Part shown: in pieces, positions 1 to 21,300 of the stretch
How positions within the stretch are numbered: the first letter of the stretch is position 1
Layout: every line of letters starts with the position of its first letter
Assembly (NCBI GenBank): GCA_006247105.1
Contig: VDLU01000012.1
Span: 1-22,946 of the forward strand
DNA: 22,946 nucleotides
Direction of reading: 5' to 3'
Origin: Giardia muris
Taxonomy: Eukaryota > Fornicata > Diplomonadida > Hexamitidae
Made by a program: the position numbers and the translations under genes
The notes under the pieces: model-generated
The model's database searches: none
What the model saw: only the letters and a program-made list of their open reading frames with translations
What the model was told of the DNA's origin: nothing

Positions 1-1557
1 GAAGGGGGAGCCACTGGCAGCAGTAGTGCACTTCCCATTGGAGGCCGATGAGCACAGCTTACTCCCGACGGAGCCCGTGGTCGTGGGGTAGCAGCCCCCC
101 TCGAAGAGGAAGTAGGTCGTCGAGCAGTTCTCGCACCTCGTGGCGGTCCCGTCGACAGGAGTCCCGTCGGCCTTCTTGCAGACGTCGTTGGTGGCCGTCC
201 TCGAGATGGTCGAGCTGACCTCGAGGCACGTCCCGTCGATCGGAACGCTTCCCTTCTTGCACTCCTTGCACACCAGGGCCTCCCCGACGAGAAGCTGGTT
301 GCTCCTGGCACAGAGGCCCGTCTTGTCCGCATCGAAGGAGGAGAGGCAGGAGGAGTTGGAGAGCATGCATCCGTTGAGGCAGGACGTGCAGGAGAAGGAC
401 CCGGAGTAGGTGCAGGTGTCGCAGTTCGCCTTCCCGTTCGTCGCGTCTCCGCAGAGGTAGAGCTTCCCGTCCTTGAGGAAGGCGATGGAGGTCGGGGTCG
501 AGCAGGTCCCGTCTGCCGTCCGAGTCGTCATTGCCTTGCACAGCTTGCTCCCGACCCCCTTTGACTGGGCATAGCACCCCCCGTTGAAGAGGAAGTGGGT
601 GCTCGAGGACCCACAGGAGTTGCAGACCCCGACCTGAGTTCCATCTTGGCTCGTCGTGCATGAGCTGGTCTGATCGGCCTTCCCCCCTTCCACCTTCAGA
701 CACCTCCCGTCGACGGGGGCGAGCCCCTTCCCGCACTTACCGCAGAGGACCTCGGACCAGCCCGGGACGGAGAAGGACTCGAGGCAGATCCCGAGGCTCT
801 TGAGGCTCTCGGGGCTGAAGCAGCCGTCGTGGAAGAAGAGGCTCCCCTCCTTGCAGGCCGTGCACTTCCCGGCGCTGGAGGCAGGGGTGCAGGAGGAGGC
901 ACTGTCCTTGAGGACGCACTTCCCGTTGACGGGGACGTGAGTGGCATCCTTGCACTCGAGACACACGAAGCTGGTCCCGATCTGCATGCAGCTCTTGCAG
1001 TTCTCGTCCGATGAGCAGCTGACGCAGGAGGTGATCGTTGGTGCATCGAGGCTCTCCACGACAGGCCCGAACCCGGGGGCGCACTCCGTGCAGGTCGGCT
1101 TGTCGGCGGCGGGGGAGGTGCAGGTCTTGCAGTTGGGAACCCCGTTCGTCTCGTCGTCGCAGGTGTAGAGGCCTGAGGGGTTGGAGTCGCTCCCCTTCAC
1201 GAAGATGCCCGTCGCAGTATCAGCCCTCTTTGAGCACTTCCCGTTCGATGCCGCCGAGCAGAGAGCAGCGCCCTCGCCTCCACTGGCCTGGTTGTAGCAC
1301 CCCCCGTAGAAGAGGAAGTAGTTGTTGGACCCACTGCCTGCATTGCAGTCCGTGCAGGCCCCATTGTTGCCCTTCGTACAATGATCCGTCGCCTCTGTTG
1401 GGGCCTTGCACGTCCCGTCGATCGAGGCCTGGCTCGTGTCACTGCACTCCTTGCAGACCTTCCCCAGCGTCCCGAGGTCGAGGCAGCTCCCCGCCTTGCA
1501 GTTGCCTGATGCCGTCCCTTCCGTACACGAGAGGGCCCTCGCGTTCTTCCCTCCCCT
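1..1557 (-). CDS. VSP cassette V10, type I, 5' leaderless, 3' end outside window
   Basis: The cysteine-rich frame reads open for 519 codons from 1557 to the window edge, beginning KNARALSC after an in-frame TAA (1560-1558). The ATG at 1564 that overlaps the previous unit's poly(A) signal is out of frame here, because the G-run at the junction is two bases shorter than in V7 and V9. No signal peptide or in-frame start is seen. The body has many CXXC pairs and several GGCY motifs (FLFYGGCY, FLFNGGCY, FLFEGGCY), which are VSP hallmarks. The membrane segment and tail lie beyond the left edge. I see no net frameshift. VSPs coat the trophozoite and undergo antigenic variation; as it stands this unit looks like a silent donor rather than an expressed gene. 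Confidence 0.8.
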
Positions 1558-1562
1558 TTACC

Positions 1563-1569
1563 ATTCACT
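1563..1569 (-). terminator. Poly(A) signal AGTGAAT of V9
   Basis: Matches Giardia AGTRAAY exactly; its first A is the last base of the V9 stop TGA, and its AAT begins the ATG that follows. Confidence 0.75.
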
Positions 1570-3455
1570 CACTTCCCCCTACATCCGAACCACCAACCGA
1601 GGAAGCCCCCGAGACCTCCCAGCACCAGCAGGACGGCGATGACGATCCCCGCAATGGCACCCCCCGAGAGCCCCGAAGAACTGGAGGAGGGGACGGCACT
1701 GCACTTCCCGTCGGTCGGGGCACTCCCGTCCCAGCACGTGATGCAGGCCGAGGCGGAGCACGTCGTGCAGCCACTGGGGCAGGCCTTGCAGTCAGAGGAG
1801 GAGGCGACGGAGGTCGTGTTGTAGTACCCGAGACCGCAGGACGTGCAGGCGGTCGCGTTCGTGCAGGCCCCACAACCGGCCGGACAGAGGGTGAAGACGC
1901 CACTGGAGAGGGGGAAGGGGGAGCCATTGGCAGCAGTAGTGCACTGACCATTGGAGGCCGTTTGACACAGCTTGCTCCCGACGGAGTTCGGAGTCACGGG
2001 ATAGCAGCCCCCCTCGAAGAGGAAGTAGGTCGTCGAACAGTTCTCGCACCTCGTGGCGGTCCCGTCGACAGGAGTCTTCCCGTCGGCCTTCATGCAGACG
2101 TCGTTGGTGGCCGTCCTCGAGATGGTCGAGCTGACCTCGAGGCACGTCCCGTCGATCGGAACACTTCCCTTCTTGCACTCCTTGCACACCAGGGCCTCCC
2201 CGACGAGAAGCTGGTTGCTCCTGGCACAGAGGCCCGTCTTGTCCGCATCGAAGGAGGAGAGGCAGGAGGAGTTGGAGAGCATGCATCCGTTGAGGCAGGA
2301 CGTGCAGGAGAAGGACCCGGAGTAGGTGCAGGTGTCGCAGTTCGCCTTCCCGTTCGTCGCGTCCCCGCAGAGGTAGAGCTTGGTGTCCTTGAGGAAGGCG
2401 ATGGAGGTCGGGGTCGAGCAGGTCCCGTCTGCCGTCCGAGTCGTCATTGCCTTGCACAGCTTGCTCCCGGGCTCCTTTGACTGGGCATAGCACCCCCCGT
2501 TGAAGAGGAAGTGGGTGCTCGAGGACCCACAGGAGTTGCAGACCCCGACCTGAGTCCCCTCTTGGCTCGTCGTGCATGAGCTGGTCGAATCGGCCTTCCC
2601 CCCTTCCACCTTCAGACACCTCCCGTCGACGGGGGCGAGCCCCTTCCCGCACTTACCGCAGAGGACCTCGGACCAGCCCGGGACGGAGAAGGACTCGAGG
2701 CAGATCCCGAGGCTCTTGAGGCTCTCGGGGCTGAAGCAGCCGTCGTGGAAGAAGAGGCTCCCCTCCTTGCAGGCCGTGCACTTCCCGGCGCTGGAGGCAG
2801 GGGTGCAGGAGGAGGCACTGTCCTTGAGGACGCACTTCCCGTTGACGGGGACGTGAGTGTCAGCATTGCACTCGAGACACACGAAGCTGGTCCCGATCTG
2901 CATGCAGCTCTTGCAGTTCTCGTTCGATGAGCAGTTGACGCAGGAGGTGATCGTTGGTGCATCGAGGCTCTCCACGACAGGCCCGAATCCGGAGGCGCAC
3001 TCCGTGCAGGTCGGCTTGTCGGCGGCGGGGGAGGTGCAGGTCTTGCAGTTGGGAACCCCGTTCGTCTTATCATCACAGGTGTAGAGGCCGGTTGGAGCAT
3101 CCTTGCTCCCCTTCACGAAGATGCCTGTCGCATCCTCGGCCCTCTTTGAGCACTGCCCTTTGGTGGCCGTCTTGCAGAGAGCAGCGCCCTCGCCTCCACT
3201 GGCCTGGTTGTAGCACCCCCCGTAGAAGAGGAAGTAGGTCCCTGCGCATGCCGTGCAGACACCATTGGAACACGTGTTGCTCTCAATAGCCGAGCTGCAC
3301 GTCCCGTCGATCGAGGCCTCGGTCGTGGTCGCGCACTCCTTGCAGACCCTCCCCAGCGTCCCGAGGTCGAGGCAGCTCCCCGTCTTGCAGTCGCCTGATG
3401 TCTCTCCTTCCGTGCACGAGAGGACTCTCGCGTTCTTCCCTCCCCCCTTCACCAT
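1569..3455 (-). CDS. VSP cassette V9, type I, intact frame, no signal peptide
   Basis: This is the longest uninterrupted VSP frame in the window (628 residues) and the only fully intact type I unit with an ATG. The ATG (3455-3453) sits inside the junction element 4 bp from the stop of V8. The first codons, MVKGGG, are junction sequence and the VSP homology starts at KNARVLSC. The N-terminus is charged and glycine-rich, so no signal peptide is present. The body has repeated CXXC motifs and GGCY boxes. Residues about 599-622 form the membrane helix and the tail is CRGK. If translated it would lack a secretion signal, unlike a normal VSP, so I infer a silent cassette whose start codon is accidental. 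The alternative is that it is expressed from an unseen upstream start or by reinitiation. Confidence 0.85.
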   Translation of the reverse strand: MVKGGGKNARVLSCTEGETSGDCKTGSCLDLGTLGRVCKECATTTEASIDGTCSSAIESNTCSNGVCTACAGTYFLFYGGCYNQASGGEGAALCKTATKGQCSKRAEDATGIFVKGSKDAPTGLYTCDDKTNGVPNCKTCTSPAADKPTCTECASGFGPVVESLDAPTITSCVNCSSNENCKSCMQIGTSFVCLECNADTHVPVNGKCVLKDSASSCTPASSAGKCTACKEGSLFFHDGCFSPESLKSLGICLESFSVPGWSEVLCGKCGKGLAPVDGRCLKVEGGKADSTSSCTTSQEGTQVGVCNSCGSSSTHFLFNGGCYAQSKEPGSKLCKAMTTRTADGTCSTPTSIAFLKDTKLYLCGDATNGKANCDTCTYSGSFSCTSCLNGCMLSNSSCLSSFDADKTGLCARSNQLLVGEALVCKECKKGSVPIDGTCLEVSSTISRTATNDVCMKADGKTPVDGTATRCENCSTTYFLFEGGCYPVTPNSVGSKLCQTASNGQCTTAANGSPFPLSSGVFTLCPAGCGACTNATACTSCGLGYYNTTSVASSSDCKACPSGCTTCSASACITCWDGSAPTDGKCSAVPSSSSSGLSGGAIAGIVIAVLLVLGGLGGFLGWWFGCRGK

Positions 3456-3460
3456 TCACT
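3454..3460 (-). terminator. Poly(A) signal AGTGAAT of V8
   Basis: Exact AGTRAAY match overlapping the V8 stop codon; the V9 ATG overlaps it on the other side. Confidence 0.75.
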
Positions 3461-5031
3461 CACTTCCCCCTGCACCCGAACCACCAACCGAGGAAGCCCC
3501 CGAGGCCTCCCAGGACCAGCAGGACGGCGATGACGATCCCCGCAATGGCACCCCCAGAGAGCCCCGAAGAACTGGAGGAGGGGGGAGAGGGGCAGGTCCC
3601 ATTGAAGGATGACCCGTCCCAGCAGGTCGTGCAGGCCGTCGTGTTGCATCCCGTGCAGCCCGAGTGGTAGATCGAGCACGCCTTGCAGTCGGGGGTGGCA
3701 GAAGCATTGGTATTGGCGTTGTAGTACCCGAAGCCGCAGGACGTGCAGGTGACGGCACCGCTCGAGGAGGTGCAGGCCCCGCACCCCGGGACCTTCGAGG
3801 AGCAGGAGACGAGGACGTTGTTGTCGAGGTAGAGGCCCGAGGTGGTATTGACAGCTGTGCAGACCCCATTAGAGGCCGTGGTGCAGGCGCTCTTCCCGAC
3901 CTCCGTGGAGGCGTTGTAGCAGCCCCCGTTGAGGAGGAAGAACTGAGTAGCCGGGGTCCCGGTCACGTCCTGGCACTTCCCGCACCTCGTGGAGGACGCA
4001 TCGAGGGCGGTTCCGTCCTCCTTCTGGCAGATCTGGGTCGCCCTCGTCACGCTCGTCGAGGCGACCGGGAAGCACTCTCCGTTGATCGGGACGAAGCCCG
4101 GCTTGCACTCGGAGCAGACCGTCGTGTTCCCGACCAGGAACTGCTTCTCCTTCGCACAGACGCCCAGCTCGGCGGCCTTGAAGGTCGAGTAGCATCCATC
4201 GAGGTAGGGGACGTATCCATTGAGGCAGGACGTGCAGGTGCCGGAGGAGTCGGTGCAGACCTTGTCGTTCTTATCCACGCACGTCCCGTCGATCGGGGCC
4301 TGACCAGTCGGACACTCGGTGCAGACGAGCCCCGGACCGAGGTTGGTGCAGGAGGTGCAGTTCTTGGGACAGGAGTCGCAGGACGTGATGGCAAGGGAGG
4401 AGTTGTAGGTCGGGCCGAAGGAGGGGAGGCAGACCTTGCAGATCTTCTCGTCCTTGTCGCACGTCTTGCAGTTCTGGATGGTACAGGCCTTGCAGGTCGA
4501 GTCGGCAAGAAGGCCGAAGCCGGGGCTGCAGGCGGAGCAGGTGTTCTCAGCACTCACCTGGGCACAGTTGGAGCACTTGGTGGTGTCACTACAGGAGACG
4601 CAGCTCCCGTCCCCCTTGGGGAGGAAGCCACTGGCACAGGAGGTGCACTTGAAGGTCGAGTCATAGGTGCAGGTGTTGCAGTTCGCCTTCCCGTTCGTGC
4701 TGTCACTGCAGAGGTAGAGGGTGTCACTCTTGACGAAGGTGACCGCGTCCTTGTCCGGGGCAGCTGTGCACTTCCCCCCGGTGGCCGTCTTGCAGAGCTT
4801 GTTCCCGGGAGAGGTGTCCGTCTTGTAGCACCCCCCGTTGAAGAGGAAGTACGGATCTGGGCAGGCCGTGCAGGCACCACTACCACAAGTAGCACCATTC
4901 CCAATCGTGGTGGCCGCAGCAGTGTCACAGAGCCCGTTGACAGGGGCGGAGTTAGTGTTAGTCGAGACATCGCACTTCTTGCAGAACGTCCCCTCAACCC
5001 CTGGGATGGTGAAGGTCGAACCACCCCCGTC
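3460..5031 (-). CDS. VSP cassette V8, type II, start-less open frame
   Basis: The VSP frame opens directly after a TGA (5034-5032) and stays open for 524 codons, ending CRGK-stop. It begins DGGGSTFTIPGVEG, followed by dense CXXC pairs, two canonical GGCY boxes, a five-serine stretch and the shared membrane helix and tail. Translating every codon I find no in-frame ATG anywhere; the first possible alternative start is a GTG at 4557. The ATG in the junction (5051) is in another frame. The unit therefore cannot be expressed as a VSP unless it is joined to a leader from elsewhere. Its 3' two-thirds closely match V5, while its N-terminal third (two-cysteine spacing, TNTNSAPVNG region) matches V6. 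I infer a silent donor cassette; a 5'-truncated pseudogene is the plain alternative. Confidence 0.85.
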   Translation of the reverse strand, partial: DGGGSTFTIPGVEGTFCKKCDVSTNTNSAPVNGLCDTAAATTIGNGATCGSGACTACPDPYFLFNGGCYKTDTSPGNKLCKTATGGKCTAAPDKDAVTFVKSDTLYLCSDSTNGKANCNTCTYDSTFKCTSCASGFLPKGDGSCVSCSDTTKCSNCAQVSAENTCSACSPGFGLLADSTCKACTIQNCKTCDKDEKICKVCLPSFGPTYNSSLAITSCDSCPKNCTSCTNLGPGLVCTECPTGQAPIDGTCVDKNDKVCTDSSGTCTSCLNGYVPYLDGCYSTFKAAELGVCAKEKQFLVGNTTVCSECKPGFVPINGECFPVASTSVTRATQICQKEDGTALDASSTRCGKCQDVTGTPATQFFLLNGGCYNASTEVGKSACTTASNGVCTAVNTTSGLYLDNNVLVSCSSKVPGCGACTSSSGAVTCTSCGFGYYNANTNASATPDCKACSIYHSGCTGCNTTACTTCWDGSSFNGTCPSPPSSSSSGLSGGAIAGIVIAVLLVLGGLGGFLGWWFGCRGK

Positions 5032-5049
5032 TCATCCTTCCCCTTCACC

Positions 5050-5056
5050 ATTCACT
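5050..5056 (-). terminator. Poly(A) signal AGTGAAT of V7
   Basis: Same arrangement as the other units; the stop used is that of the restored tail frame (5056), not the frameshifted one (5052). Confidence 0.7.
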
Positions 5057-6929
5057 CACTTCCCCCTGCATCCGAACCACCAACCGAGGAAGCCCCCGAG
5101 GCCTCCCAGCACCAGCAGGACGGCAATGACGATCCCCGCAATGGCACCCCCGAGAGCCCCGAGGAGCTGGAGGAGGGGACGGCACTGCACTTCCCGTCGG
5201 TCGGAGCACTCCCGTCCCAGCACGTGATGCAGGCCGAGGCGGAGCACGTCGTGCAGCCACTGGGGCAGGCCTTGCAGTCAGAGGAGGAGGCGACGGAGGT
5301 CGTGTTGTAGTACCCGAGACCGCAGGACGTGCAGGCGGTCGCGTTCGTGCAGGCCCCACACCCGGCCGGACAGAGGGTGAAGACGCCATTGGAGAGGGGG
5401 AAGGGGGAGCCACTGGCAGCAGTAGTGCACTGACCATTGGAGGCCGATGAGCACAGCTTACTCCCGACGGAGTTCGGAGTCACGGGGTAGCAGCCCCCCT
5501 CGAAGAGGAAGTAGGTCGTCGAGCAGTTCTCGCACATCGTGGCGGTCCCGTCGACAGGAGTCTTCCCGTCGGCCTTCATGCAGACGTCGTTGGTGGCCGT
5601 CCTCGAGAGGGTCGAACTGACCTCGAGGCACGTCCCGTCGATCGGAACGCTTCCCTTCTTGCACTCCTTGCACACCAGGGCCTCCCCGACGAGAAGCTGG
5701 TTGCTCCTGGCACAGAGGCCCGTCTTGTCCGCATCGAAGGAGGAGAGGCAGGAGGAGTTGGAGAGCATGCATCCGTTGAGGCAGGACGTGCAGGAGAAGG
5801 ACGTGGAGTAGGTGCAGGTGTTGCAGTTCGCCTTCCCGTTCGTCGCATCCCCGCAGAGGTAGAGCTTGGTGTCCTTGAGGAAGGCGATGGAAGTCGGGGT
5901 CGAACACGCTCCAGAGGAGGGGGTTGCACTGCACAGCTTGTTCCCGACCCCCTTTGACTGGTCGTAGCACCCCCCGTTGAAGAGGAAGTGGGTGTTCGAG
6001 GACCCACAGGAGTTGCAGACCCCGACCTGGGTGTCCTTTTGGCTCGTCGTGCATGAGCTGGTCGAATCGGCCTTCCCCCCTTCCACCTTCAGACACCTCC
6101 CGTCGACGGGGGCGAGCCCCTTCCCGCACTTACCGCAGAGGACCTCAGACCAGCCCGGGACGGAGAAGGACTCGAGGCAGATCCCGAGGCTCTTGAGGCT
6201 CTCGGGGCTGAAGCAGCCGTCGTGGAAGAAGAGGCTCCCCTCCTTGCAGGCCGTGCACTTCCCGGCGCTGGAGGCAGGGGTGCAGGAGGAGGCACTGTCC
6301 TTGGGGACGCACTTCCCGTCGACGGGGACGTGAGTGTCAGCATTGCACTCGAGACACACGAAGCTGGTCCCGATCTGCATGCAGCTCTTGCAGTTCTCGT
6401 CCGATGAGCAGCTGACACAGGAGGTGATCGTTGGTGCATCGAGGCTCTCCACGACAGGCCCGAACCCGGAGGCGCACTCCGTGCAGGTCGGCTTGTTGGT
6501 GGCGGGGGAGGTGCAGGTCTTGCAGTTGGGAACCCCGTTCGTCTCGTCGTCGCAGGTGTAGAGGCCTGAGGGGTTGGAGTTACTCCCCTTCACGAAGATG
6601 CCCGTCGCAGCATCAGCCCTCTCTGAGCACTGCCCTTTGGTGGCCGTCTTGCAGAGAGCAGCACCCTCTGTTCCTGCCTGGTTGTAGCACCCCCCGTAGA
6701 AGAGGAAGTAGGTCCCTGTACATGCCGTGCAGACACCATTGGAACACGTGTTGCTCCCGACGGTCGAGCTGCACGTCCCGTCGATCGAGGCCTCGGTCGT
6801 GGTCGCGCACTCCTTGCAGACCCTCCCCAGCGTCCCGAGGTCGAGGCAGCTCCCCGTCTTGCTGTCGCCTGATGTCTCTCCTTCCGTGCACGAGAGGACT
6901 CTCGCGTTCTTCCCTCCCCCCTTCACCAT
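5052..6929 (-). pseudogene. VSP cassette V7, type I, frameshifted just before the membrane helix
   Basis: An in-frame ATG (6929-6927) within the junction opens a 625-codon frame, MVKGGGKNARVLSC onward, closely related to V9 and also lacking a signal peptide. Cysteine-rich modules and GGCY boxes are intact. At the C-run complementary to the tract 5147-5151 there is one base fewer than in V9 or V10, so the frame leaves the VSP register right after the Ser-rich stem (GLSG) and ends without the membrane helix or CRGK. The helix and tail persist in the neighbouring frame (5056-5247). The protein as encoded would not be membrane anchored. A single homopolymer deletion could be a sequencing error or a true mutation. 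Confidence 0.8.
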
Positions 6930-6934
6930 TCACT
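6928..6934 (-). terminator. Poly(A) signal AGTGAAT of V6
   Basis: Exact match at the V6/V7 junction, overlapping stop and ATG. Confidence 0.75.
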
Positions 6935-8498
6935 CACTTCCCCCTGCACCCGAACCACCAACCGAGGAAGCCCCCGAGGCCTCCCAGCACCAGCAGGACG
7001 GCGATGACGATCCCCGCAATGGCACCCCCAGAGAGCCCCGAGGAGCTGGAGGAGGGGGGAGGGGGGCAGGCATTGTTGGTGGGAGTGGAGCCGTCCCAGC
7101 AGAGGGCGCACTTCCCATTTGGACAGGAGGTGCACCCACTGGGACAGGCCGTGCAGTCGGAGGGGCCGGTCACAGTAGAGTTGCTGTAGTACCCGAGACC
7201 GCAGGAGCTGCAGGCGGTCGAGGAGGTGCAGGCCCCGCACTCCTTCGGACAGGCCGTGAAGGCGCCTGAGGTCGTATTGAGGATGAAGGGGGCGTTGGAG
7301 GCGGGAGTAGTGCACTTCCCGTTGGAGGCCGCCGAGCAGAGGAGGCTCCCGACGGAGGAAGAGGAGGAAGACCCCGCGGCCGAGATGGGGTAGCACCCCC
7401 CGTTGAAGAGGAAGTAGTTGTTGGTGTTGACTGCCGTACTGATGCAGGCCCCGCACTTCGTGGCGGTGTCCGAGACCTTGTTCCCCTTCTCGTCGAGGCA
7501 GATGTTCTGACCTGCCCTCGTTGTCCCCGTGTTGATCTGCTTGATCGGAAGACACTCCCCGTCGATCGGGACGAAGCCCCCCTTGCACTCGGTACAGACG
7601 GTCGTGTTCCCGACGAGGAGCTGGCTTCCCAGGGCACAGACCTTGAGGTCCGCCGCCTTCTGGGGGAGAGACACCCGCCCTGGTAGAAGAGGAACCCGTT
7701 CTTGCAGGACGAGCAGGTCCCGTCTGGGGGTGATGGAGTCGTGCAGACGTTCGAGTTCGTGGAGCAGTTCCCGTCGATGGGGACCTTCCCCGTTCCGCAC
7801 TTCTCGCAGATGGTCGAGAAGCCCTGGTCGGCGCACTCGGTGCAGTCTGCGGGGCAGGAGGTGCAGTTCGTGATGACGAGGGATGAGTCGTAGACGGGCC
7901 CGAACCCGGAAGCGCACTCGGAGCAGGCGGAGGAGGAGCACGTCTTGCAGTTCTGGACGGTGCAGGCCGTGCAGTTGACGGGGTCGGAAGTGGTGGTGGT
8001 GTTGGGGTAGAAGCCCTCGAGGCACGAGTTGCAGGTGAGGACTTCTCCAGCACGAGAGCCGGGAGTAGGTGGAGTTGGTGTCGCATAGGTGCAGGTGCTG
8101 CAGCCCGGTTCCCCGTTTGTCGCATCGCTACAGAGGTAGAGGTTGCTGTCCTTGATGAAGGTGATGGCATCGGTAGTTGGAGCCGTCTTGCAGGTTCCGT
8201 TCTTTGCATCCTGGAGGGCGGAGCACAGCTTACTCCCAACCCCCTGTGTCTGGTCATAACAACCCCCGTTGAACAGGAAGTAGTTCCCCGTTCCACATCC
8301 TGTACAGACACCACTACCACAAGTAGCACCATTTCCAATCGTAGTGGCCGCAGCAGTGTCACAGAGCCCGTTGACAGGGGCGGAGTCAGTGTTAGTCGTG
8401 GCATCGCACTTCTTGCAGAACTCTCCCTCAACCCCCGGGATGGTGAACTTTGAGTTTGCCTCGCACTCTCCCGTGGCTCGAGCCTTCACCTCCCCCCT
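6934..8498 (-). pseudogene. VSP cassette V6, divergent type, start-less, one frameshift
   Basis: The frame opens after TGA (8501-8499) with RGEVKARATGECEANSKFTIPGVEG; no ATG precedes it in frame, and the first alternative start is a GTG at 8489. This N-terminus is unlike the other cassettes: GGAGGTGAAG at its edge also occurs at the leader/body boundary of V1. The N-terminal half (to about 7667) and the C-terminal half lie in different frames. The switch maps to a G-run at 7662-7666 (C-run on the coding strand), consistent with one missing base. The C-terminal half contains a CXXC-rich region, a FLFNGGCY box followed by a serine run, the stem CALCWDGSTPTNNAC, the shared membrane helix and CRGK. 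It is the only copy of its class here. Confidence 0.8.
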
Positions 8499-8503
8499 TC
8501 ACC

Positions 8504-8510
8504 ATTCACT
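8504..8510 (-). terminator. Poly(A) signal AGTGAAT of V5
   Basis: Exact match at the V5/V6 junction, overlapping stop and ATG. Confidence 0.75.
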
Positions 8511-9997
8511 CACTTCCCCCTGCACCCGAACCACCAACCGAGGAAGCCCCCGAGGCCTCCCAGGACCAGCAGGACGGCGATGACGATCCCCGCAATGGCA
8601 CCCCCAGAGAGCCCCGAAGAACTGGAGGAGGGGGGAGAGGGGCAGGTCCCATTGAAGGATGACCCGTCCCAGCAGGTCGTGCAGGCCGTCGTGTTGCATC
8701 CCGTGCAGCCCGAGTGGTAGATCGAGCACGCCTTGCAGTCGGGGGTGGCAGAAGCATTGGTATTGGCGTTGTAGTACCCGAAGCCGCAGGACGTGCAGGT
8801 GACGGCACCGCTCGAGGAGGTGCAGGCCCCGCACCCCGGGACCTTCGAGGAGCAGGAGACGAGGACGTTGTTGTCGAGGTAGAGGCCCGAGTCAGCCTTG
8901 ACAGCTGTGCAGACCCCACCAGAGGCCGTGGTGCAGGCGCTCTTCCCGACCTCCGTGGAGGCGTTGTAGCAGCCCCCGTTGAGGAGGAAGAACTGAGTAG
9001 CCGGGGTCCCGGTCACGTCCTGGCACTTCCCGCACCTCGTGGAGGACGCGTCGGGGGCGCTTCCGTCCTCCTTCTGGCAGATCTGGGTCGCCCTCGTCAC
9101 GTTCGTCGAGGCGACCAGAAGGCATTCTCCGTTGATCGGGACGAAGCCCGGCTTGCACTCGGAGCAGACCGTCGTGTTCCCGACCAGGAACTGCTTCTCC
9201 TTCGCACAGACGCCCAGCTCGGCGGCCTTGAAGGTCGAGTAGCATCCCTCGAGGTAGGGGACGTATCCATTGAGGCAGGACGTGCAGTGTCCGGAGGAGT
9301 CGGCGCAGACCTTCTTGGTGGTCTCGTTTGCAGGAACACACCCCCCGTCGATCGGGGCCTGATCAGTCTGACACTCGGTGCAGACGAGCCCCGGACCGAG
9401 GTTGGTGCAGGAGGTGCAGTTCTTGGGACAGGAGTCGCAGGACGTGATGGCAAGGGAGGAGCTGTAGGTCGGGCCGAAGGAGGGGAGGCAGACCTTGCAG
9501 GTCTTCTCGTCCGTGTCGCACGTCTTGCAGTTCTGGATGGTACAGGCCTTGCAGGTCTTGCCAGTCTCTCCAACAAGGCCAAAGCCGGGAAGGCAGGTCT
9601 GACAGGTGAAGGTGGTTGAGGACGACTCGTAGGTGCACGTCCCGCAGTTCTCTTTTCCTCCCGCATCTGTCGAGTTGTCACTGCAGAGGTAGAGCTTACC
9701 TCCATTGACGAAGGTGATGGCATCCGTGGCCGCCGCAGTACAAGCACCACTGGTGACGGTTGAGCAGAGCTTCTTCCCGACGTCACCCGTCTTGTTGTAG
9801 CACCCACCATAGAAGAGGAAGTAGTCCGTTCCTGTTCCACATCCTGTGCAGGCACCATCAGCACAAGTAGCACCCGTGACAGTGGTAGTCGGATTCGCTG
9901 CACAAGCCCCATCGATCGGGGCCTGGTTCGTGTCACTGCACTTCTTGCAGAACTCCCCCTCAACCCCCGGGATGGTGAAGGTCGAACCACCCCCGTC
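8510..9997 (-). CDS. VSP cassette V5, type II, start-less open frame
   Basis: I read this frame codon by codon: it is open from 9997 to the stop at 8510 (495 residues) and contains no ATG. The junction ATG at 10018 is in frame but hits TGA (10000-9998) after six codons. The first alternative start is a GTG at 9100, deep inside. The order is FTIPGVEGEFCKKC, a FLFYGGCY box (DYFLFY), a long CXXC-rich middle (IQNCKTCDTDEKTCKVC), a FLLNGGCY box, the SSFNGTC stem, Ser5, membrane helix and CRGK. The body is nearly co-linear with V2 and V8. With no start, no leader and no promoter space it is best read as a silent donor or a 5'-truncated copy kept open. Confidence 0.85.
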   Translation of the reverse strand, partial: DGGGSTFTIPGVEGEFCKKCSDTNQAPIDGACAANPTTTVTGATCADGACTGCGTGTDYFLFYGGCYNKTGDVGKKLCSTVTSGACTAAATDAITFVNGGKLYLCSDNSTDAGGKENCGTCTYESSSTTFTCQTCLPGFGLVGETGKTCKACTIQNCKTCDTDEKTCKVCLPSFGPTYSSSLAITSCDSCPKNCTSCTNLGPGLVCTECQTDQAPIDGGCVPANETTKKVCADSSGHCTSCLNGYVPYLEGCYSTFKAAELGVCAKEKQFLVGNTTVCSECKPGFVPINGECLLVASTNVTRATQICQKEDGSAPDASSTRCGKCQDVTGTPATQFFLLNGGCYNASTEVGKSACTTASGGVCTAVKADSGLYLDNNVLVSCSSKVPGCGACTSSSGAVTCTSCGFGYYNANTNASATPDCKACSIYHSGCTGCNTTACTTCWDGSSFNGTCPSPPSSSSSGLSGGAIAGIVIAVLLVLGGLGGFLGWWFGCRGK

Positions 9998-10016
9998 TCA
10001 TCCTCCCCCCTTCACC

Positions 10017-10023
10017 ATTCACT
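10017..10023 (-). terminator. Poly(A) signal AGTGAAT of V4
   Basis: Exact match at the V4/V5 junction, overlapping stop and ATG. Confidence 0.75.
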
Positions 10024-11926
10024 CACTTCCCCCTGCATCCGAACCACCAACCGAGGAAGCCCCCGAGGCCTCCCAGCACCAGCAGGACGGCGATGACGAT
10101 CCCCGCAATGGCACCCCCCGAGAGCCCCGAGGAGCTGGAGGAGGGGACGGCACTGCACTTCCCGTCGGTCGGGGCACTCCCGTCCCAGCACGTGATGCAG
10201 GCCGAGGCGGAGCACGTCGTGCAGCCACTGGGGCAGGCCGTGCAGTCAGAGGAGGAGGTGACGGAGGTCGTGTTGTAGTACCCGAGACCGCAGGACGTGC
10301 AGGTGGTGGCAGAGGAGCATGCCCCACACCCGGCCGGACAGAGGGTGAAGACGCCTGAGGTCGTATTGAGAGGGAAGGGGGAGCCACTGGCAGCCTGAGA
10401 GCACTGACCATTGGAGGCCGATGAGCACAGCTTGCTCCCGACGGAGCCCGTGGTCGTGGGATAGCAGCCCCCCTCGAAGAGGAAGTAGGCCGTCGAGCAG
10501 TTCTCGCACCTCGTGGCGGTCCCGTCGACAGGAGTCGTCCCGTCGGCCTTCATGCAGACGTCGTTGGTGGCCGTCCTCGAGATGGTCGAGCTGACCTCGA
10601 GGCACGTCCCGTCGATCGGAACACTTCCCTTCTTGCACTCCTTGCACACCAGGGCCTCCCCGACGAGAAGCTGGTTGCTCCTGGCACAGAGGCCCGTCTT
10701 GTCCGCATCGAAGGAGGAGAGGCAGGAGGAGTTGGAGAGCATGCATCCGTTGAGGCAGGACGTGCAGGAGAAGGACCCGGAGTAGGTGCAGGTGTTGCAG
10801 TTCGCCTTCCCGTTCGTCGCGTCCCCGCAGAGGTAGAGCTTGGTGTCCTTGAGGAAGGCGATGGAGGTCGGGGTCGAGCAGGTCCCGTCTGCCGTCCGAG
10901 TCGTCATTGCCTTGCACAGCTTGCTCCCGGGCTCCTTTGACTGGGCATAGCACCCCCGTTGAAGAGGAAGTAGGTGCTCGAGGACCCACAGGAGTTGCAG
11001 ACCCCGACCTGAGTTCCATCTTGGCTCGTCGTGCATGAGCTGGTCTGATCGGCCGTCCCCCCTTCCACCTTTATACACCTCCCGTCGACGGGGGCGAGCC
11101 CCTTCCCGCACTTACCGCAGAGGACCTCGGACCAGCCCGGGACGGAGAAGGACTCGAGGCAGATCCCGAGGCTCTTGAGGCTCTCGGGGCTGAAGCAGCC
11201 GTCGTGGAAGAAGAGGCTCCCCTCCTTGCAGGCCGTGCACTTCCCGGCGCTGGAGGCAGGAGTGCAGGAGGAGGCACTGTCCTTGGGGACGCACTTCCCG
11301 TCGACGGGGACGTGAGTGGTACCATTGCACTCGAGACACACGAAGCTGGTCCCGATCTGCATGCAGCTCTTGCAGTTCTCGTTCGATGAGCAGTTGACGC
11401 AGGAGGTGATCGTTGGTGCATCGAGGCTCTCCACGACAGGCCCGAACCCGGAGGCGCACTCCGTGCAGGTCGGCTTGTCGGCGGCGGGGGAGGTGCAGGT
11501 CTTGCAGTTGGGAACCCCGTTCGTCTCGTCGTCGCAGGTGTAGAGGCCTGAGGGGTTGGAGTCGCTCCCCTTCACGAAGATGCCCGTCGCAGTATCAGCC
11601 CTCTCTGAGCACTTCCCGTTCGATGCCGTCTTGCAGAGAGCCTGCCCCTTTCCAGCTGTCTGAGTGCTGTAGCAGCCCCCGTAGAAGAGGAAGTTGTTGG
11701 CTGCATTCCCGCACGAGCTGCACGTCCCGTTGTTCGCATTGACACAATCGTTCCCACTGGTCGAGGTGCACTCCCCGTCGATTGGGAACTCAGCAGCTCG
11801 AGTCGTGGTCGCGCACTCCTTGCATACCTTCCCCAGCGTCCCGAGGTCGAGGCAGCTCCCCGCCTTGCAGTTGCCTGATGCCGTCCCTTCCGTACACGAG
11901 AGGACTCTCGCGTTCTTCCCTCCCCT
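10023..11926 (-). pseudogene. VSP cassette V4, type I, start-less, one frameshift
   Basis: The VSP frame opens after TGA (11929-11927) with KNARVLSC; the junction ATG (11933) is out of frame, as in V10. The body is type I, with a distinctive N-terminal module (NAANNFLFYGGCY) not shared with V9 or V7. The frame breaks at the C-run 10953-10957, inside a FLFNGGCY box, where this copy has five C where most copies have six. The remaining type I modules, stem, membrane helix and CRGK follow in the next frame to 10023. V3 carries the same five-C allele together with a linked Tyr codon next to it, which suggests a true inherited mutation rather than a read error. Confidence 0.8.
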
Positions 11927-11931
11927 TCACC

Positions 11932-11938
11932 ATTCACT
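11932..11938 (-). terminator. Poly(A) signal AGTGAAT of V3
   Basis: Exact match at the V3/V4 junction, overlapping stop and ATG. Confidence 0.75.
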
Positions 11939-13792
11939 CACTTCCCCCTGCATCCGAACCACCAACCGAGGAAGCCCCCGAGACCTCCCAGCACCAGCAG
12001 GACGGCGATGACGATCCCCGCAATGGCACCCCCAGAGAGCCCCGAGGAGCTGGAGGAGGGGGGAGAGGGGCAGGTCCCATTGAAGGATGACCCGTCCCAG
12101 CAGGTCGTGCAGGCCGTCGTGTTGCATCCCGTGCAGCCCGAGTGGTAGATCGAGCACGCCTTGCAGTCGGGGGTGGCAGAAGCATTGGTGTTGGCGTTGT
12201 AGTACCCGAAGCCGCAGGACGTGCAGGTGGTGGTTCCGTTCGAGGAGGAGCAGGCCCCACAGCCGGCCGGACAGGGGGTGAAGGTCCCGTTCGCGTCCAC
12301 GAGGAAGGGGCCCCCGCTGGTCGGGGCGGCGGTGCACTTCCCGTTGGAGGCCGCTGAGCACAGCTTACTCCCGACGGAGTTCGAGGTCGTGGGATAGCAG
12401 CCCCCCTCGAAGAGGAAGTAGGTCGTCGAGCAGTTCTCGCACCTCGTGGCGGTCCCGTCGACAGGAGTCGTCCCGTCGGCCTTCATGCAGACGTCGTTGG
12501 TGGTCGTCCTCGAGATGGTCGAGCTGACCTCGAGGCACGTCCCGTCGATCGGAACACTTCCCTTCTTGCACTCCTTGCACACCAGGGCCTCCCCGACGAG
12601 AAGCTGGTTGCTCCTGGCACAGAGGCCCGTCTTGTCCGCATCGAAGGAGGAGAGGCAGGAGGAGTTGGAGAGCATGCATCCGTTGAGGCAGGACGTGCAG
12701 GAGAAGGACCCGGAGTAGGTGCAGGTGTTGCAGTTCGCCTTCCCGTTCGTCGCGTCCCCGCAGAGGTAGAGCTTCTTGTCCTTGAGGAAGGCGATGGAGG
12801 TCGAGGTCGAGCAGGTCCCGTCTGCCGCCCGAGTCGTCATTGCCGTGCACAGCTTGTTCCCGGGCTCCTTTGACTGGTTGTAGCACCCCCGTTGAAGAGG
12901 AAGTAGGTGCTCGAGGACCCACAGGAGTCGCAGACCCCGACCTGAGTTCCATTTTGGCTCGTCGTGCATGAGCTGGTCGAATCGGCCTTCCCCCCTTCCA
13001 CCTTCAGACACCTCCCGTCGACGGGGGCGAGCCCCTTCCCGCACTTACCGCAGAGGACCTCGGACCAGCCCGGGACGGAGAAGGACTCGAGGCAGATCCC
13101 GAGGCTCTTGAGGCTCTCGGGGCTGAAGCAGCCGTCGTGGAAGAAGAGGCTCCCCTCCTTGCAGGCCGTGCACTTCCCGGCGCTGGAGGCAGGAGTGCAG
13201 GAGGAGGCACTGTCCTTGAGGACGCACTTCCCGTTGACGGGGACGTGAGTGTCATCATTGCACTCGAGACACACGAAGCTGGTCCCGATCTGCATGCAGC
13301 TCTTGCAGTTCTTGTCCGATGAGCAGCTGACACAGGGAGGTGATCGTTGGTGCATCGAGGCTCTCCACGACAGGCCCGATCCGGAGGCGCACTCCGTGCA
13401 GGTCGGCTTGTCGGCGGCGGGGGAGGTGCAGGTCTTGCAGTTGGGAACCCCGTTCGTCTTATCATCACAGGTGTAGAGGCCTGAGGGGTTGGAGTCGCTC
13501 CCCTTCACGAAGATGCCCGTCGCAGTATCAGCCCTCTTTGAGCACTGCCCGTTCGATGCCGCCGAGCAGAGAGCAGCGCCCTCGCCTCCACTGGCCTGGT
13601 TGTAGCATCCCCCGTAGAAGAGGAAGTAGGTCCCTGTGCATGCCGTGCAGACACCAGTGGTTGTGTCCTTCGTACAATCATCGGCTGTTGGGCCTTGCAC
13701 GTCCCGTCGATCGAGGCCTGACTCGTGTCACTGCACTCCTTGCAGACCTTCCCCTCAACCCCCGGGATGGTGAAGGTCGAACCACCCCCGTC
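11938..13792 (-). pseudogene. VSP cassette V3, mosaic of type II and type I, several frameshifts
   Basis: The 5' edge is type II (GGSTFTIPGVEG after TGA at 13795-13793), the body from about KVCKEC onward is type I, and the 3' stem and upstream CXXC module (CKACSIYHSGC to SSFNGTC) are type II again, before the shared membrane helix and CRGK. Indels are visible against sister copies: one base lost near 13693; an extra G at 13335-13337 compensated by a lost A at about 13379, which leaves a short out-of-frame stretch; and a five-C run at 12886-12890 that breaks a FLFNGGCY box as in V4. No in-frame start exists. The exchange points fall in conserved cysteine modules, as expected for segmental gene conversion or unequal crossing over. 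Confidence 0.8.
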
Positions 13793-13810
13793 TCATCCTT
13801 CCCCTTCACC

Positions 13811-13817
13811 ATTCACT
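13811..13817 (-). terminator. Poly(A) signal AGTGAAT of V2
   Basis: Exact match at the V2/V3 junction, overlapping stop and ATG. Confidence 0.75.
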
Positions 13818-15271
13818 CACTTCCCCCTGCATCCGAACCACCAACCGAGGAAGCCCCCGAGACCTCCCAGGACCAGAAGGACGGCAATGACGATCCCCGC
13901 AATGGCACCCCCAGAGAGCCCGAGGAGCTGGAGGAGGGGGGAGGGGGGCAGGTCCCATTGAAGGACGACCCGTCCCAGCAGGTCGTGCAGGCCGTCGTGT
14001 TGCATCCCGTGCAGCCCGAGTGGTAGATCGAGCACGCCTTGCAGTCGGGGGTGGCTCCAGCTGTGGTGTTGGCGTTGTAGTACCCGAAGCCGCAGGACGT
14101 GCAGGTGACGGCACCGCTCGAGGAGGTGCAGGCCCCGCACCCCGGGACCTTCGAGGAGCAGGAGACGAGGACGTTGTTGTCGAGGTAGAGGCCCGAGGTG
14201 GTATTGACAGCTGTGCAGACCCCATTAGAGGCCGTGGTGCAGGCGCTCTTCCCGACCTCCGTGGAGGCGTTGTAGCAGCCCCCGTTGAGGAGGAAGAAGT
14301 TAGTGGTCGAGGCCCCGGTCACGTCCTGGCACTTCCCGCACCTCGTGGAGGACGCATCGAGGGCGCTTCCGTCCTCCTTCTGGCAGATCTGGGTCGCCCT
14401 CGTCACGTTCGTCGAGGCGACCAGAAGGCATTCTCCGTTGATCGGGACGAAGCCCGGCTTGCACTCGGAGCAGACCGTCGTGTTCCCGACCAGGAACTGC
14501 TTCTCCTTCGCACAGACGCCCAGCTCGGCGGCCTTGAAGGTCGAGTAGCATCCCTCGAGGTAGGGGACGTATCCATTGAGGCAGGACGTGCAGTGTCCGG
14601 AAGAGTCGGCGCAGACCTTCTGGTGGTTCGTTTGCGGAACGCACCCCCGTCGATCGGGCCTGATCAGTCGGACACTCGGTGCAGACGAGCCCCGGACCGA
14701 GGTTGGTGCAGGAGGTGCAGTTCTTGGGACAGGAGTCGCAGGACGTGATGGCAAGGGAGGAGTTGTAGGTCGGGCCGAAGGAGGGGAGGCAGACCTTGCA
14801 GGTCTTCTCGTCCGTGTCGCACGTCTTGCAGTTCTGGATGGTCAGGCCTTGCAGGTCTTGCCAGTCTCTCCAACAAGGCCAAGCCGGGAAGGCAGGCTGA
14901 CAGGTGAAGGTGGTTGAGGACGACTCGTAGGTGCACGTCCGCAGTTCTCTTTTCCTCCGCATCTGTCGAGTTGTCACTGCAGAGGTAGAGCTTACTCCAT
15001 TGAGAAGGTGAGGCATCCGGGCCGCCGCATCCAGCACCACGGTGCGTTGGCAGAGCTTCTTCCCGACGTCACCGTCTTTGTAGCACCCACCATAGAAGAG
15101 GAAGTAGTCCGTTCCTGTTCCACATCCTGTGCAGGCACCATCCACAAGTAGCACCCGTGACAGTGGTCGGATCGCTGCACAAGCCCATTGATCGGGGCCT
15201 GGTTCGTGTCACTGCACTTCTTGCAGAACTCCCCTCAACCCCGGGATGGTGAAGGTCGAACCACCCCCGTC
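13817..15271 (-). pseudogene. VSP cassette V2, type II, start-less, heavily frameshifted
   Basis: This is a copy co-linear with V5: FTIPGVEG edge, DYFLFYGGCY box, IQNCKTC middle, FLLNGGCY box, SSFNGTC stem, membrane helix and CRGK. It opens after a TGA and has no in-frame start. Bases 13925-14619 match V5 and V8 well. From about 14621 to 15270 many one- and two-base losses scatter the VSP reading over three frames, for example around 14621-14660 and 15225-15245. A further missing C at 13919-13921 shifts the frame just before the membrane helix. Losses occur both in homopolymers and outside them. Either this is a decayed copy or an unpolished stretch of assembly. Confidence 0.75.
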
Positions 15272-15288
15272 TCATCCTCCCCTTCACC

Positions 15289-15295
15289 ATTCACT
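15289..15295 (-). terminator. Poly(A) signal AGTGAAT of V1
   Basis: Exact match directly at the V1 stop; the same element that ends the silent units also ends the leader-bearing one. Confidence 0.75.
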
Positions 15296-17225
15296 CACTT
15301 CCCCCTGCATCCGAACCACCAACCGAGGAAGCCCCCGAGCCTCCCAGCACCACAGGACGGCGATGACGATCCCCGCAATGGCACCCCCGAGAGCCCCGAG
15401 GAGCTGGAGGAGGGGACGGCACTGCACTTCCCTCGGTCGGGCACTCCCGTCCCAGCACGTGATGCAGGGCCGAGGCGGAGCACGTCGTGCAGCCACTGGG
15501 GCAGGCCTTGCAGTCAGAGGAGGAGGTGACGGGGTCGTGTTGTAGTACCCGAGACCGCAGGACGTGCAGTCGGTCGAGGAGGCAGGCCCACAACCGGCCG
15601 GACAGAGGGTGAAGACGCCATTGAAAAGGGAAGGGGAGTTGGTGGCCTTTGTTGTGCACTCCATTGGAGGCCGATGAGCACAGCTTACTCCCGACGGAGC
15701 CCGTGGTCGTGGGGTAGCAGCCCCCCTCGAAGAGGAAGTAGGGTCGTCGAAGCAGTTCTCGCACCTCGTGGCGGTCCCGTCGACAGGAGTCCCGTCGGCC
15801 TTCTTGCAGACGTCGTTGGTGGCCGTCCTCGAGATGGTCGAGCTGACCTCGAGGCACGTCCCGTCGATCGGAACGCTTCCCTTCTTGCACTCCTTGCACA
15901 CCAGGGCCTCCCCGACGAGAAGCTGGTTGCTCCTGGCACAGAGGCCCGTCTTGTCCGCATCGAAGGAGGAGAGGCAGGAGGAGTTGGAGAGCATGCATCC
16001 GTTGAGGCAGGACGTGCAGGAGAAGGACCCGGAGTAGGTGCAGGTGTTGCAGTTCGCCTTCCCGTTCGTCGCGTCCCCGCAGAGGTAGAGCTTGGTGTCC
16101 TTGAGGAAGGCGATGGAGGTCGGGGTCGAGCAGGTCCCGTCTGCCGTCCGAGTCGTCATTGCCGTGCACAGCTTGTTCCCGACCCCCTTTGACTGGGCAT
16201 AGCACCCCCCGTTGAAGAGGAAGTGGGTGCTCGAGGACCCACAGGAGTGCAGACCCCGACCTGAGTTCCTCTTGGCTCGTCGTGCATGAGCTGGTCGATC
16301 GGCCTCCCCCTTCCACCTTCAGACACCTCCCGTCGACGGGGGCGAGCCCCTTCCCGCACTTACCGCAGAGGACCTCGGACCAGCCGGGACGGAGAAGGAC
16401 TCGAGGCAGATCCCGAGGCTCTTGAGGCTCTCGGGGCTGAAGCAGCCGTCGTGGAAGAAGAGGCTCCCCTCCTTGCAGGCCGTGCACTTCCCGGCATGGA
16501 GGCAGGGTGCAGGAGGAGGCACTGTCCTTGGGACGCACTTCCCGTTGACGGGGACGTGAGTGGCACATTGCACTCGAGACACACGAAGCTGGTCCCGATC
16601 TGCATGCAGCTCTTGCAGTTCTCGTCGATGAGCAGTTGACGCAGGAGGTGATCGTTGGTGCATCGAGGCTCTCCACGACAGGCCCGAACCGGAGGCGCAC
16701 TCCGTGCAGGTCGGCTTGTCGGCGGCGGGGGAGGTGCAGGTCTTGCAGTTGGGAACCCCGTTCGTCTTATCATCACAGGTGTAGAGGCCTGAGGGGTTGG
16801 AGTCGCTCCCCTTCACGAAGATGCCCGTCGCAGTATCAGCCCTCTTGAGCACTGCCCGTTCGATGCCGCGGCAGAGAGCAGCGCCTTGTCCAGCCTGGTC
16901 TAGCACCCCCGTAGAAGAGAAGTGTCCCTGTGCATGCCGTGCAGACACCATTGGACACGTGTTGCTCCGACGGTCGAGCTGCACGTCCCGTCGATCGAGG
17001 CCTGTTCGTGTCGCGCACTCCTTGCAGACCTTCCCCAGCGTCCCGAGGTCGAGGCAGCTCCCCGTCTTGCAGTTGCCTGATGCCTCCTTCCGTACACGAG
17101 AGGACTCTCGCGTTCTTCACCTCCATCGAGCCCTCGAGGACGTCGATCTCCGGTACTGCTCTCCCGGAGGAGCGGTCGATCGTCCCGAGTACTGCACTGG
17201 CTGTCAAGACTAGCGCAACTAACAT
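15295..17225 (-). pseudogene. VSP V1, type I, only unit with start codon and signal peptide; many frameshifts
   Basis: The ATG at 17225-17223 starts a 14-residue hydrophobic signal peptide (MLVALVLTASAVLG) and a short leader ending EGSMEV, followed by KNARVLSCTEG, the point where V4, V7, V9 and V10 begin. This is the only VSP in the window with upstream intergenic DNA, so it should be the promoter-proximal, expressible copy. VSPs are exported through the ER and anchored by the C-terminal helix with the CRGK tail. As given, the frame breaks at about 17082-17085 and repeatedly after that (about 16240-17085 and 15300-15760), while 15770-16240 is clean and almost identical to V10. The tail in the correct frame ends at 15295. 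Whether the gene is broken or the sequence is poor here decides its status. Confidence 0.8.
17118..17225 (-). other. Leader region unique to V1 (signal peptide plus pro-segment, 36 codons)
   Basis: Codons 1-36 of V1. Residues 1-14 are the signal peptide and the rest is an acidic linker with a second in-frame ATG (17126-17124). None of V2-V10 contains this stretch; shared type I homology starts at 17117. The context around the start codon is AATGTT, which resembles the initiator described at G. intestinalis vsp start codons (recalled, not checked). If cassettes are copied into V1, this segment would be the invariant part. Confidence 0.75.
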
Positions 17226-21133: not shown

Positions 21134-21300
21134 GAAGTGATTGGCAACTCGATCTTCGGAACTTTCGTCTCATCCCTCGAATCGCGCAGAACGCGGAGAA
21201 AACGGTTAGTAGTAGCCGTATAGGTGAGAGATAACCTTCATTGAGCTCTGCCATCCCATCCATCCGTCCAATTTTCCTGGAGTACTGCAGACTGAACAAA
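21134..21300. promoter_or_regulatory. Divergent intergenic region, 167 bp
   Basis: This lies between the start of the minus-strand membrane protein (21133) and the plus-strand gene at 21301. The bases just before the plus-strand ATG are GAACAAA, an A-rich context like a Giardia initiator. A GGAACTTTCG patch lies at about 21158-21167 in front of the minus gene. The frame of the plus gene is also open upstream of 21301 without an ATG. Confidence 0.4.

What the first reader, a model, noticed from the sequence alone, without database searches (positions are those of the whole stretch)
1..17225. One leader-bearing VSP followed by nine or more leaderless cassettes: a possible archive for segmental antigenic variation
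Seen: only V1 has an ATG with a signal peptide and upstream intergenic DNA. V2-V10 start at the mature-protein homology, abut each other within 4 to about 25 bp, and mostly lack any in-frame start, yet V5, V8, V9 and V10 keep frames of about 500-630 codons open with CXXC, GGCY and (where inside the window) tail motifs intact. Known: Giardia VSP switching is usually described as selection among complete genes with post-transcriptional or epigenetic control, while Borrelia vls and Anaplasma msp2 use one expression site plus promoterless 5'-truncated donor cassettes. Inference: this array has the second architecture. Maintenance of open frames in units that cannot be translated suggests selection through gene conversion into V1, or very recent amplification.
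Basis: partly seen in the sequence, partly recalled or inferred. Interest (0 to 1): 0.88.

Follow-up and report, generated by a model that had tools for sequence, protein, structure and literature searches.

The report
Telomeric leaderless surface-antigen array, Giardia muris
A mouse gut parasite keeps rows of surface-protein gene bodies without a start near its chromosome ends, behind one copy that has a start; the layout and the idea that it is a spare-parts store are already published, but the assembly also holds three versions of this spot in which the same start is joined to different bodies.

Summary
The array is real. The window is a whole contig of what is almost certainly the published Giardia muris assembly. 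Leaderless tandem VSP arrays at its chromosome ends were reported in 2020 (PMC7641422); that such units may be cassettes recombining with the first, expressible gene was proposed for G. lamblia in 2010 (PMC2996952). Architecture and hypothesis are known.

Correction: V1 is not intact in this contig. Its frame from the ATG runs 129 codons; V1-V4, V6 and V7 carry frame-shifting indels, probably in part consensus errors. In the parts of four main-contig arrays read, 51 of 52 leaderless cassettes are open, with strong cysteine conservation.

Added: three contigs share flank and leader without a substitution over 5.8 kb but carry three different first-gene bodies. The C2 head contains a 1,033-nt exact copy of leaderless V5; the C7 head shares its 3' part and, nearly unchanged, everything telomere-ward with a cassette leaderless in C2. 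A leader joint stands on the centromere side at all 10 main contig ends. Three of four breakpoints fit telomere-ward exchange; the fourth also fits conversion. Misassembly is not excluded.

The parts
17223..17225 (-). start codon of the leader (MLVALVLTASAVLG...), context AATGTT
17115..17225 (-). leader and mature N-terminus up to the leader joint; identical in C2 and C7
17115..17141 (-). 27-nt leader-joint element, the only copy in the window, 58 in the genome
15276..17114 (-). V1 body, frame-broken in this contig; best listed match elsewhere 94%
13798..15275 (-). V2 leaderless cassette, frame-broken in this contig (unit borders are those of the repeated tail/spacer, about 25 nt either way)
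11919..13797 (-). V3 leaderless cassette, frame-broken in this contig
10004..11918 (-). V4 leaderless cassette, one frame-shifting indel
8491..10003 (-). V5 leaderless cassette, open 495 codons; 1033 nt of its 3' part are identical to the body of the leader-bearing head on C2
6915..8490 (-). V6 leaderless cassette; 5' part differs from C2 unit 2, nearly identical from about 8046 downward
5037..6914 (-). V7 leaderless cassette, same as C2 unit 3 apart from one indel
3441..5036 (-). V8 leaderless cassette, open 523 codons, identical to C2 unit 4
1550..3440 (-). V9 leaderless cassette, open 628 codons, identical to C2 unit 5
1..1549 (-). V10 leaderless cassette, open 519+ codons, cut by the contig end
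17479..19134 (+). ankyrin-repeat/protein-kinase gene (NEK-type by analogy with Xu et al.) divergent from the array, in the flank shared by C2, C6 and C7; the stop-to-stop frame begins at 16915

Best explanation
This is one structural version of a telomere-adjacent pseudo-VSP array at the right end of contig C2 of Giardia muris: a leader-bearing head gene followed, towards the telomere, by leaderless but mostly open VSP cassettes and then rDNA. Most likely the cassettes are a non-expressed archive. Homologous recombination in the 5' half of a cassette (crossover or break-induced replication running towards the telomere, with local conversion patches) joins the constant promoter and leader to the 3' body of another cassette and tends to bring that cassette's telomere-ward neighbours along. 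Because the leader sits on the centromere side and repeats and rDNA lie beyond, one exchange could install a new body without losing unique genes. Shown: the anatomy, the three alternative heads in the assembly, the exact tracts and the coding constraint. Inferred: that the head is expressed, that the exchanges happened in living cells, and that they cause antigenic switching.
For: Flank and leader without substitution between C6 and C2 and between C6 and C7 over 5.8 kb (5 gap openings each) while head bodies differ. C2 head against V5: 107 substitutions up to nt 463 of the body, then 1 in about 1,100 nt, with a 1,033-nt exact tract; 2 of 1,485 pairs among 55 main-contig cassettes share a tract that long. 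C7 head against C2 unit 8: 45 substitutions up to nt 804, none after in the cassette, then 2 substitutions and 14 indels over the rest of C7 to its rDNA end. V6 against C2 unit 2: 48 substitutions up to nt 448, then none in the cassette, 1 mismatch and 2 gaps over the whole 8,048-bp match. C5-left against C33: break at nt 629, 2 substitutions and 3 indels telomere-ward. V1 and V5 have no near-identical copy outside C6/C10 among the listed matches (40 candidates scored of 231 and of 306). Leader joint on the centromere side at 10 of 10 main contig ends. Cassettes: 51 of 52 open; 31 of 50 tree edges at 5% divergence or less give pN/pS 0.58, stop-creating changes 0 seen against 41.9 expected, cysteine-codon changes 8 against 140.
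Against: The assembly is PacBio RS II/HGAP; cassettes about 95% alike could be confused during read correction, and C6 and C10 are error-rich. No read-level check was possible. The identity of the C2 head with V5 does not run on telomere-ward without a break: the first 450 nt or so of the next cassette (V6 against C2 unit 2) differ before identity resumes, so that tract taken alone could be a conversion. No exact donor was found for the 5' parts of the C2 and C7 heads or for V1. Nine of ten heads at main contig ends show no ATG plus hydrophobic stretch in what was read (Kyte-Doolittle scan, no signal-peptide program; some reads ended at the edge of the stretch held). No expression data for this head were seen. 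The direction of the events (loss from a C6-like or gain from a C2-like state) is unknown.
Confidence: 0.47

Rival explanations
1. Archive used by segmental gene conversion into the head or into the central complete VSPs, without exchange of flanking cassettes (Adam 2010 and Xu 2020 in general terms; the first reader).
For: Mosaic exact tracts of about 80-300 nt between heads and scattered cassettes; the V5 tract in the C2 head is bounded on both sides by differing sequence; Xu et al. infer recombination or segmental gene conversion from phylogeny.
Against: In three of the four comparisons with a clear breakpoint (V6/C2 unit 2, C7 head/C2 unit 8, C5-left/C33) near-identity continues telomere-ward through the following cassettes for 8 kb or more.
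Confidence: 0.28
2. The alternative heads are assembly artefacts: one true array, with C6, C7 and C10 built from noisy reads confused among similar cassettes.
For: HGAP assembly of RS II reads; V1-V3 rich in missing bases; C6/C10 differ mostly by one-base homopolymer indels; the second C7 unit has a shorter open stretch (397 codons) than its C2 counterpart (504).
Against: C6 and C10 agree over 12.6 kb, of which C6 8046-14906 has no match of 99% or more elsewhere in the contigs held; C7 is anchored in the flank and in SSU rDNA and its head frame is open over 606 codons; a 351-nt piece of the C7 5' head is at most 98% like any other listed place (40 of 98 candidates scored).
Confidence: 0.27
3. 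Dead relics: a recent amplification of truncated copies with no role.
For: Reported as non-transcribed, leaderless; some copies in one array are nearly identical.
Against: Even among the 12 edges at 2% divergence or less, cysteine-codon changes are 3 against 20.8 expected and stop-creating changes 0 against 5.5.
Confidence: 0.1
4. Cassettes are expressed through in-frame ATGs after the upstream stop, or by trans-splicing of a leader.
For: 13 of 51 open cassettes have an in-frame ATG directly after the upstream stop.
Against: The residues after it (such as MVKGGGKNARVLSCTEG, MVRGGKNAR) are not a hydrophobic leader; Xu et al. report essentially no transcription.
Confidence: 0.03

Closest known systems
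Giardia muris pseudo-VSP arrays (Xu et al. 2020, PMC7641422; abstract, sections on assembly, VSPs, sequencing methods and discussion, and passages read)
   Same: Same organism and almost certainly same assembly: leaderless tandem VSPs near telomeres, tail end to the terminus, silent, recombining with complete VSPs.
   Different: The text read does not mention a leader joint at each array head, three alternative heads at the C2 end, or cysteine-codon constraint; supplementary figures and tables were not seen.
Giardia lamblia vsp linear arrays (Adam et al. 2010, PMC2996952; abstract passage, further passages and the section on linear arrays read)
   Same: First gene often with upstream region and initiator (12 of 25), no initiator in downstream members; hypothesis of cassettes recombining with the first gene or distant genes.
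   Different: Telomeric vsp genes are described as rare there; no alternative heads at one locus in what I read.
Pneumocystis jirovecii msg-I with CRJE (PMC10622565; passages read)
   Same: Constant upstream part, mostly open silent copies in subtelomeres, mosaicism, a proposed single recombination that exchanges genes together with the telomere.
   Different: There each msg-I copy starts with the CRJE; here the 27-nt element stands at heads and breaks lie inside the body.
Trypanosoma brucei VSG expression sites (recalled; Xu et al. make the comparison)
   Same: Telomere-ward replacement of an antigen gene from a silent archive.
   Different: Different protein family; expression-site machinery untested here.
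Borrelia vls and Anaplasma msp2 (recalled)
   Same: One expressible copy plus truncated donors.
   Different: Bacterial; flanks are kept and segments converted; here the telomere-ward side travels along in three of four comparisons.

Membership tests
Giardia VSP / pseudo-VSP | PF03302 match and many CXXC | tested here: met
   (V5, V8, V9 and the C2 head; other units not scanned one by one)
Giardia VSP / pseudo-VSP | conserved membrane tail ending in GCRGK (G. muris form) | tested here: met
   nine of nine tails in the window; V10 tail lies outside
Giardia VSP / pseudo-VSP | pseudo-VSP: no signal peptide | tested here: met
   V2-V10 start without leader (read by eye; no signal-peptide program)
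G. [quoted passage not shown]
   for the C2 end; rDNA beyond it; the window itself has no rDNA match
G. muris telomere-adjacent array | cassettes not transcribed | not testable with these tools
   reported by Xu et al.
Pneumocystis-type leader/CRJE switching | constant leader with variable bodies at one locus | tested here: inconclusive
   three assembled versions; assembly error not excluded
Pneumocystis-type leader/CRJE switching | shared junction element at the start of each silent copy | tested here: not met
   one element in the window, at the head
Borrelia vls-type segmental conversion | donor tracts inside the expressed copy with flanks unchanged | tested here: inconclusive
   short mosaic tracts and the V5 tract are compatible; three of four breaks extend telomere-ward
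any antigenic-switching system | expressed antigen changes between clones | not testable with these tools
   no clone or RNA data

The most novel reading that the evidence does not exclude
Giardia muris switches (or has switched) the body of a telomere-adjacent, leader-bearing VSP by telomere-ward exchange or break-induced replication inside the head cassette, and the published assembly already contains three products of this at one chromosome end. That would be antigenic variation by DNA rearrangement in Giardia, where switching is described as epigenetic, and would explain why the terminal arrays point their tails to the telomere.
Probability: 0.3. Interest if true: 0.72.

Novelty: already known. 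Interest (0 to 1): 0.42.

Why it matters
The architecture and the archive idea are in print, so the finding as written is not new. If the three heads are real, they turn a hypothesis about Giardia arrays printed in 2010 into something that existing raw reads can test, and give a geometric reason for the orientation of the arrays: one exchange replaces the antigen body and costs only repeats and rDNA.

Tried and rejected
Intact expression site in the window: rejected, V1 is frame-broken here. Junction element at every cassette, as in Pneumocystis: rejected. Whole-body donor for the C2 head: none among the listed matches, best 96% (28 candidates scored of 191). One functional leader per array genome-wide: not supported. 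Whole-genome comparison of C34: one search scored only 5 of 145 candidates and did not list C34 itself, so it was not used. Rows dropped: one C5 unit cut by the edge of the held stretch is in no count; one short C2 unit near the contig start (363 codons) is the one of 52 that is not open and was left out of the selection counts. Units were found by the exact tail motif, so a cassette without its tail would be missed.

Full report
Identity. The window is contig C6 in full (22,946 bp) of an assembly of 9,737,486 bases in 52 contigs. Two contigs of 1,296,710 and 1,289,658 bases match the 1.297 and 1.290 Mbp chromosomes of the Giardia muris genome paper (that text gives 59 contigs and 9.8 Mbp), and the GCRGK tail is the G. 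muris form. I take the window to be G. muris; this is inference, no record name was shown.

Observation. Nine tails plus one cut unit lie head to tail on the minus strand. Only the first has a leader. The open frames claimed for V5, V8, V9 and V10 are there. But V1 is not an intact gene in this contig: its frame from the ATG runs 129 codons, and frame-shifting indels against the nearest open cassette number 28, 20, 5, 1, 0, 3, 1, 0, 0 from V1 to V9. The excess of missing bases near V1 and the one-base, mostly homopolymer indels between C6 and C10 suggest consensus error; but V2 and V6 have equally short open stretches before the tail in both contigs, so not every break need be one.

Prior art. 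Xu et al. 2020 (abstract, four sections and passages) report 239 leaderless pseudo-VSPs, 183 of them in 17 arrays, nine of ten main contig ends with an array and one with a cluster of two, tails to the terminus, essentially no transcription, and exchange with complete VSPs; they compare with Pneumocystis and T. brucei. Adam et al. 2010 (passages and the section on linear arrays; [quoted passage not shown] The G. intestinalis WB reference paper (passages) also notes pseudo-VSPs in arrays without proper start codons. Architecture and hypothesis are therefore known.

Survey. A 27-nt leader-joint pattern has 58 matches genome-wide at up to 2 mismatches (49 exact, reversed control 0) against 230 tail-spacer matches at up to 3 mismatches (control 0; 100 listed). 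By coordinates a joint lies on the centromere side and same strand of the terminal array or cluster at all 10 main contig ends (C1 5738-, C1 2767858+, C2 29713-, C2 2370238+, C3 19682-, C3 1270279+, C4 26601-, C4 1254885+, C5 23030-, C5 1115127+), with array positions, and of the internal C5 array (555737-). Exceptions: minus-strand cassettes beside the C1 right-end array are headed by a VSP with a different leader and no joint, and minus-strand cassettes near C4 1245-1252 kb have no listed joint. N-termini read at 51 of 58 joints show an ATG with a clearly hydrophobic stretch (Kyte-Doolittle mean above 2 over 8 residues) only at the three contigs of this locus and at C5 478 kb and C3 1,123 kb; C1 2,535 kb is borderline (1.38).

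Coding constraint. In the parts of four array ends read, 51 of 52 leaderless cassettes are open over 483-662 codons. On a minimum spanning tree of these 51 (50 edges), the 31 edges at 5% divergence or less have pN/pS 0.58, 0 stop-creating changes against 41.9 expected, and 8 cysteine-codon changes against 140 expected; the 12 closest edges give 3 against 20.8. The zero for stops is built in, since open units were chosen, but only one unit was left out for being short. The cassettes thus carry variation filtered by protein function, which fits exchange with expressed genes better than free decay.

Three heads at one locus. C6 shares the flank and leader with C2 and with C7 without a substitution over 5.8 kb (5 gap openings each; C2 against C7 directly: 3 mismatches and 12 gaps in 9.6 kb). 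C2: leader plus a 593-codon open frame (553 from the ATG). Its body departs from V5 up to nt 463, then has one substitution in about 1,100 nt, including a 1,033-nt exact tract; V5 in C6 is leaderless. C7: leader plus a 606-codon open frame (566 from the ATG), different from C2 unit 8 up to nt 804, then without substitution to the cassette end, then 2 substitutions and 14 indels to the rDNA; C7 holds three tailed cassettes where C2 holds ten. C6: leader plus V1, then V2-V5, which among the contigs held match at 99% or more only C10, then V6, a mosaic with C2 unit 2 (break at nt 448), then near-identity with C2 to the contig end (1 mismatch, 2 gaps in 8,048 bp). C5-left against C33 breaks likewise at nt 629, with 2 substitutions telomere-ward. 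In three of these four comparisons the telomere side stays nearly identical for 8 kb or more; in the fourth (C2 head/V5) the start of the next cassette differs for about 450 nt before identity resumes, which a conversion could also leave.

Mechanism. Breaks lie inside the body, not at the leader joint, and the silent cassettes of the window lack the joint element. Near-identity running telomere-ward is what crossover or break-induced replication would leave. With leaders centromere-side and tails telomere-side, a single exchange swaps the body and costs only repeats and rDNA. Expression and switching are inferred. The strongest rival for the structural part is misassembly; raw reads decide it.

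Print check. Searches in the held library: apart from the papers named above I saw listings only. No listing pointed to alternative heads at one G. muris locus, and the two papers holding 'Giardia', 'VSP' and 'break-induced replication' are about trypanosomes and a microsporidian. Subscription papers and supplements were not seen.

Noticed in passing
40 listed places genome-wide; window 17115-17200: The leader segment AVLGTIDRSSGR..PEIDVLEGSMEV is 92-100% identical in DNA at 40 listed places (40 of 85 candidates scored), although most of the 51 N-termini read have no start codon with hydrophobic leader in front; why it stays so conserved is open.
   Followed up: partly
cassette junctions, e.g. 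window 3441-3460 and 6915-6936: The length of a G run after the stop codon sets whether the post-stop ATG is in frame with the next cassette; 13 of 51 open cassettes start with an in-frame ATG.
   Followed up: no
L077-L079 (C34), C33, C5 left end: C34 1-13325 equals C33 15814-29133 (99.9%) and C34 1-4542 matches the C5 left end (99.3%); by coordinates the other part of C34 seems to follow the C4 left end, so different chromosome ends may share telomere-ward cassettes.
   Followed up: partly
C5:531533-555763: Internal array with an exact 2,017-bp spacing between the ten listed tails and a leader joint at its 5' end; Xu et al. describe a recent duplication there.
   Followed up: no
L013:2292-6614 and L016:1-199: rDNA lies telomere-ward of the C2 array and at the end of C7.
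   Followed up: yes
window 19157-21169 - and 21465-22361 +: Two open frames in the shared flank without a Pfam match at E 0.001.
   Followed up: no
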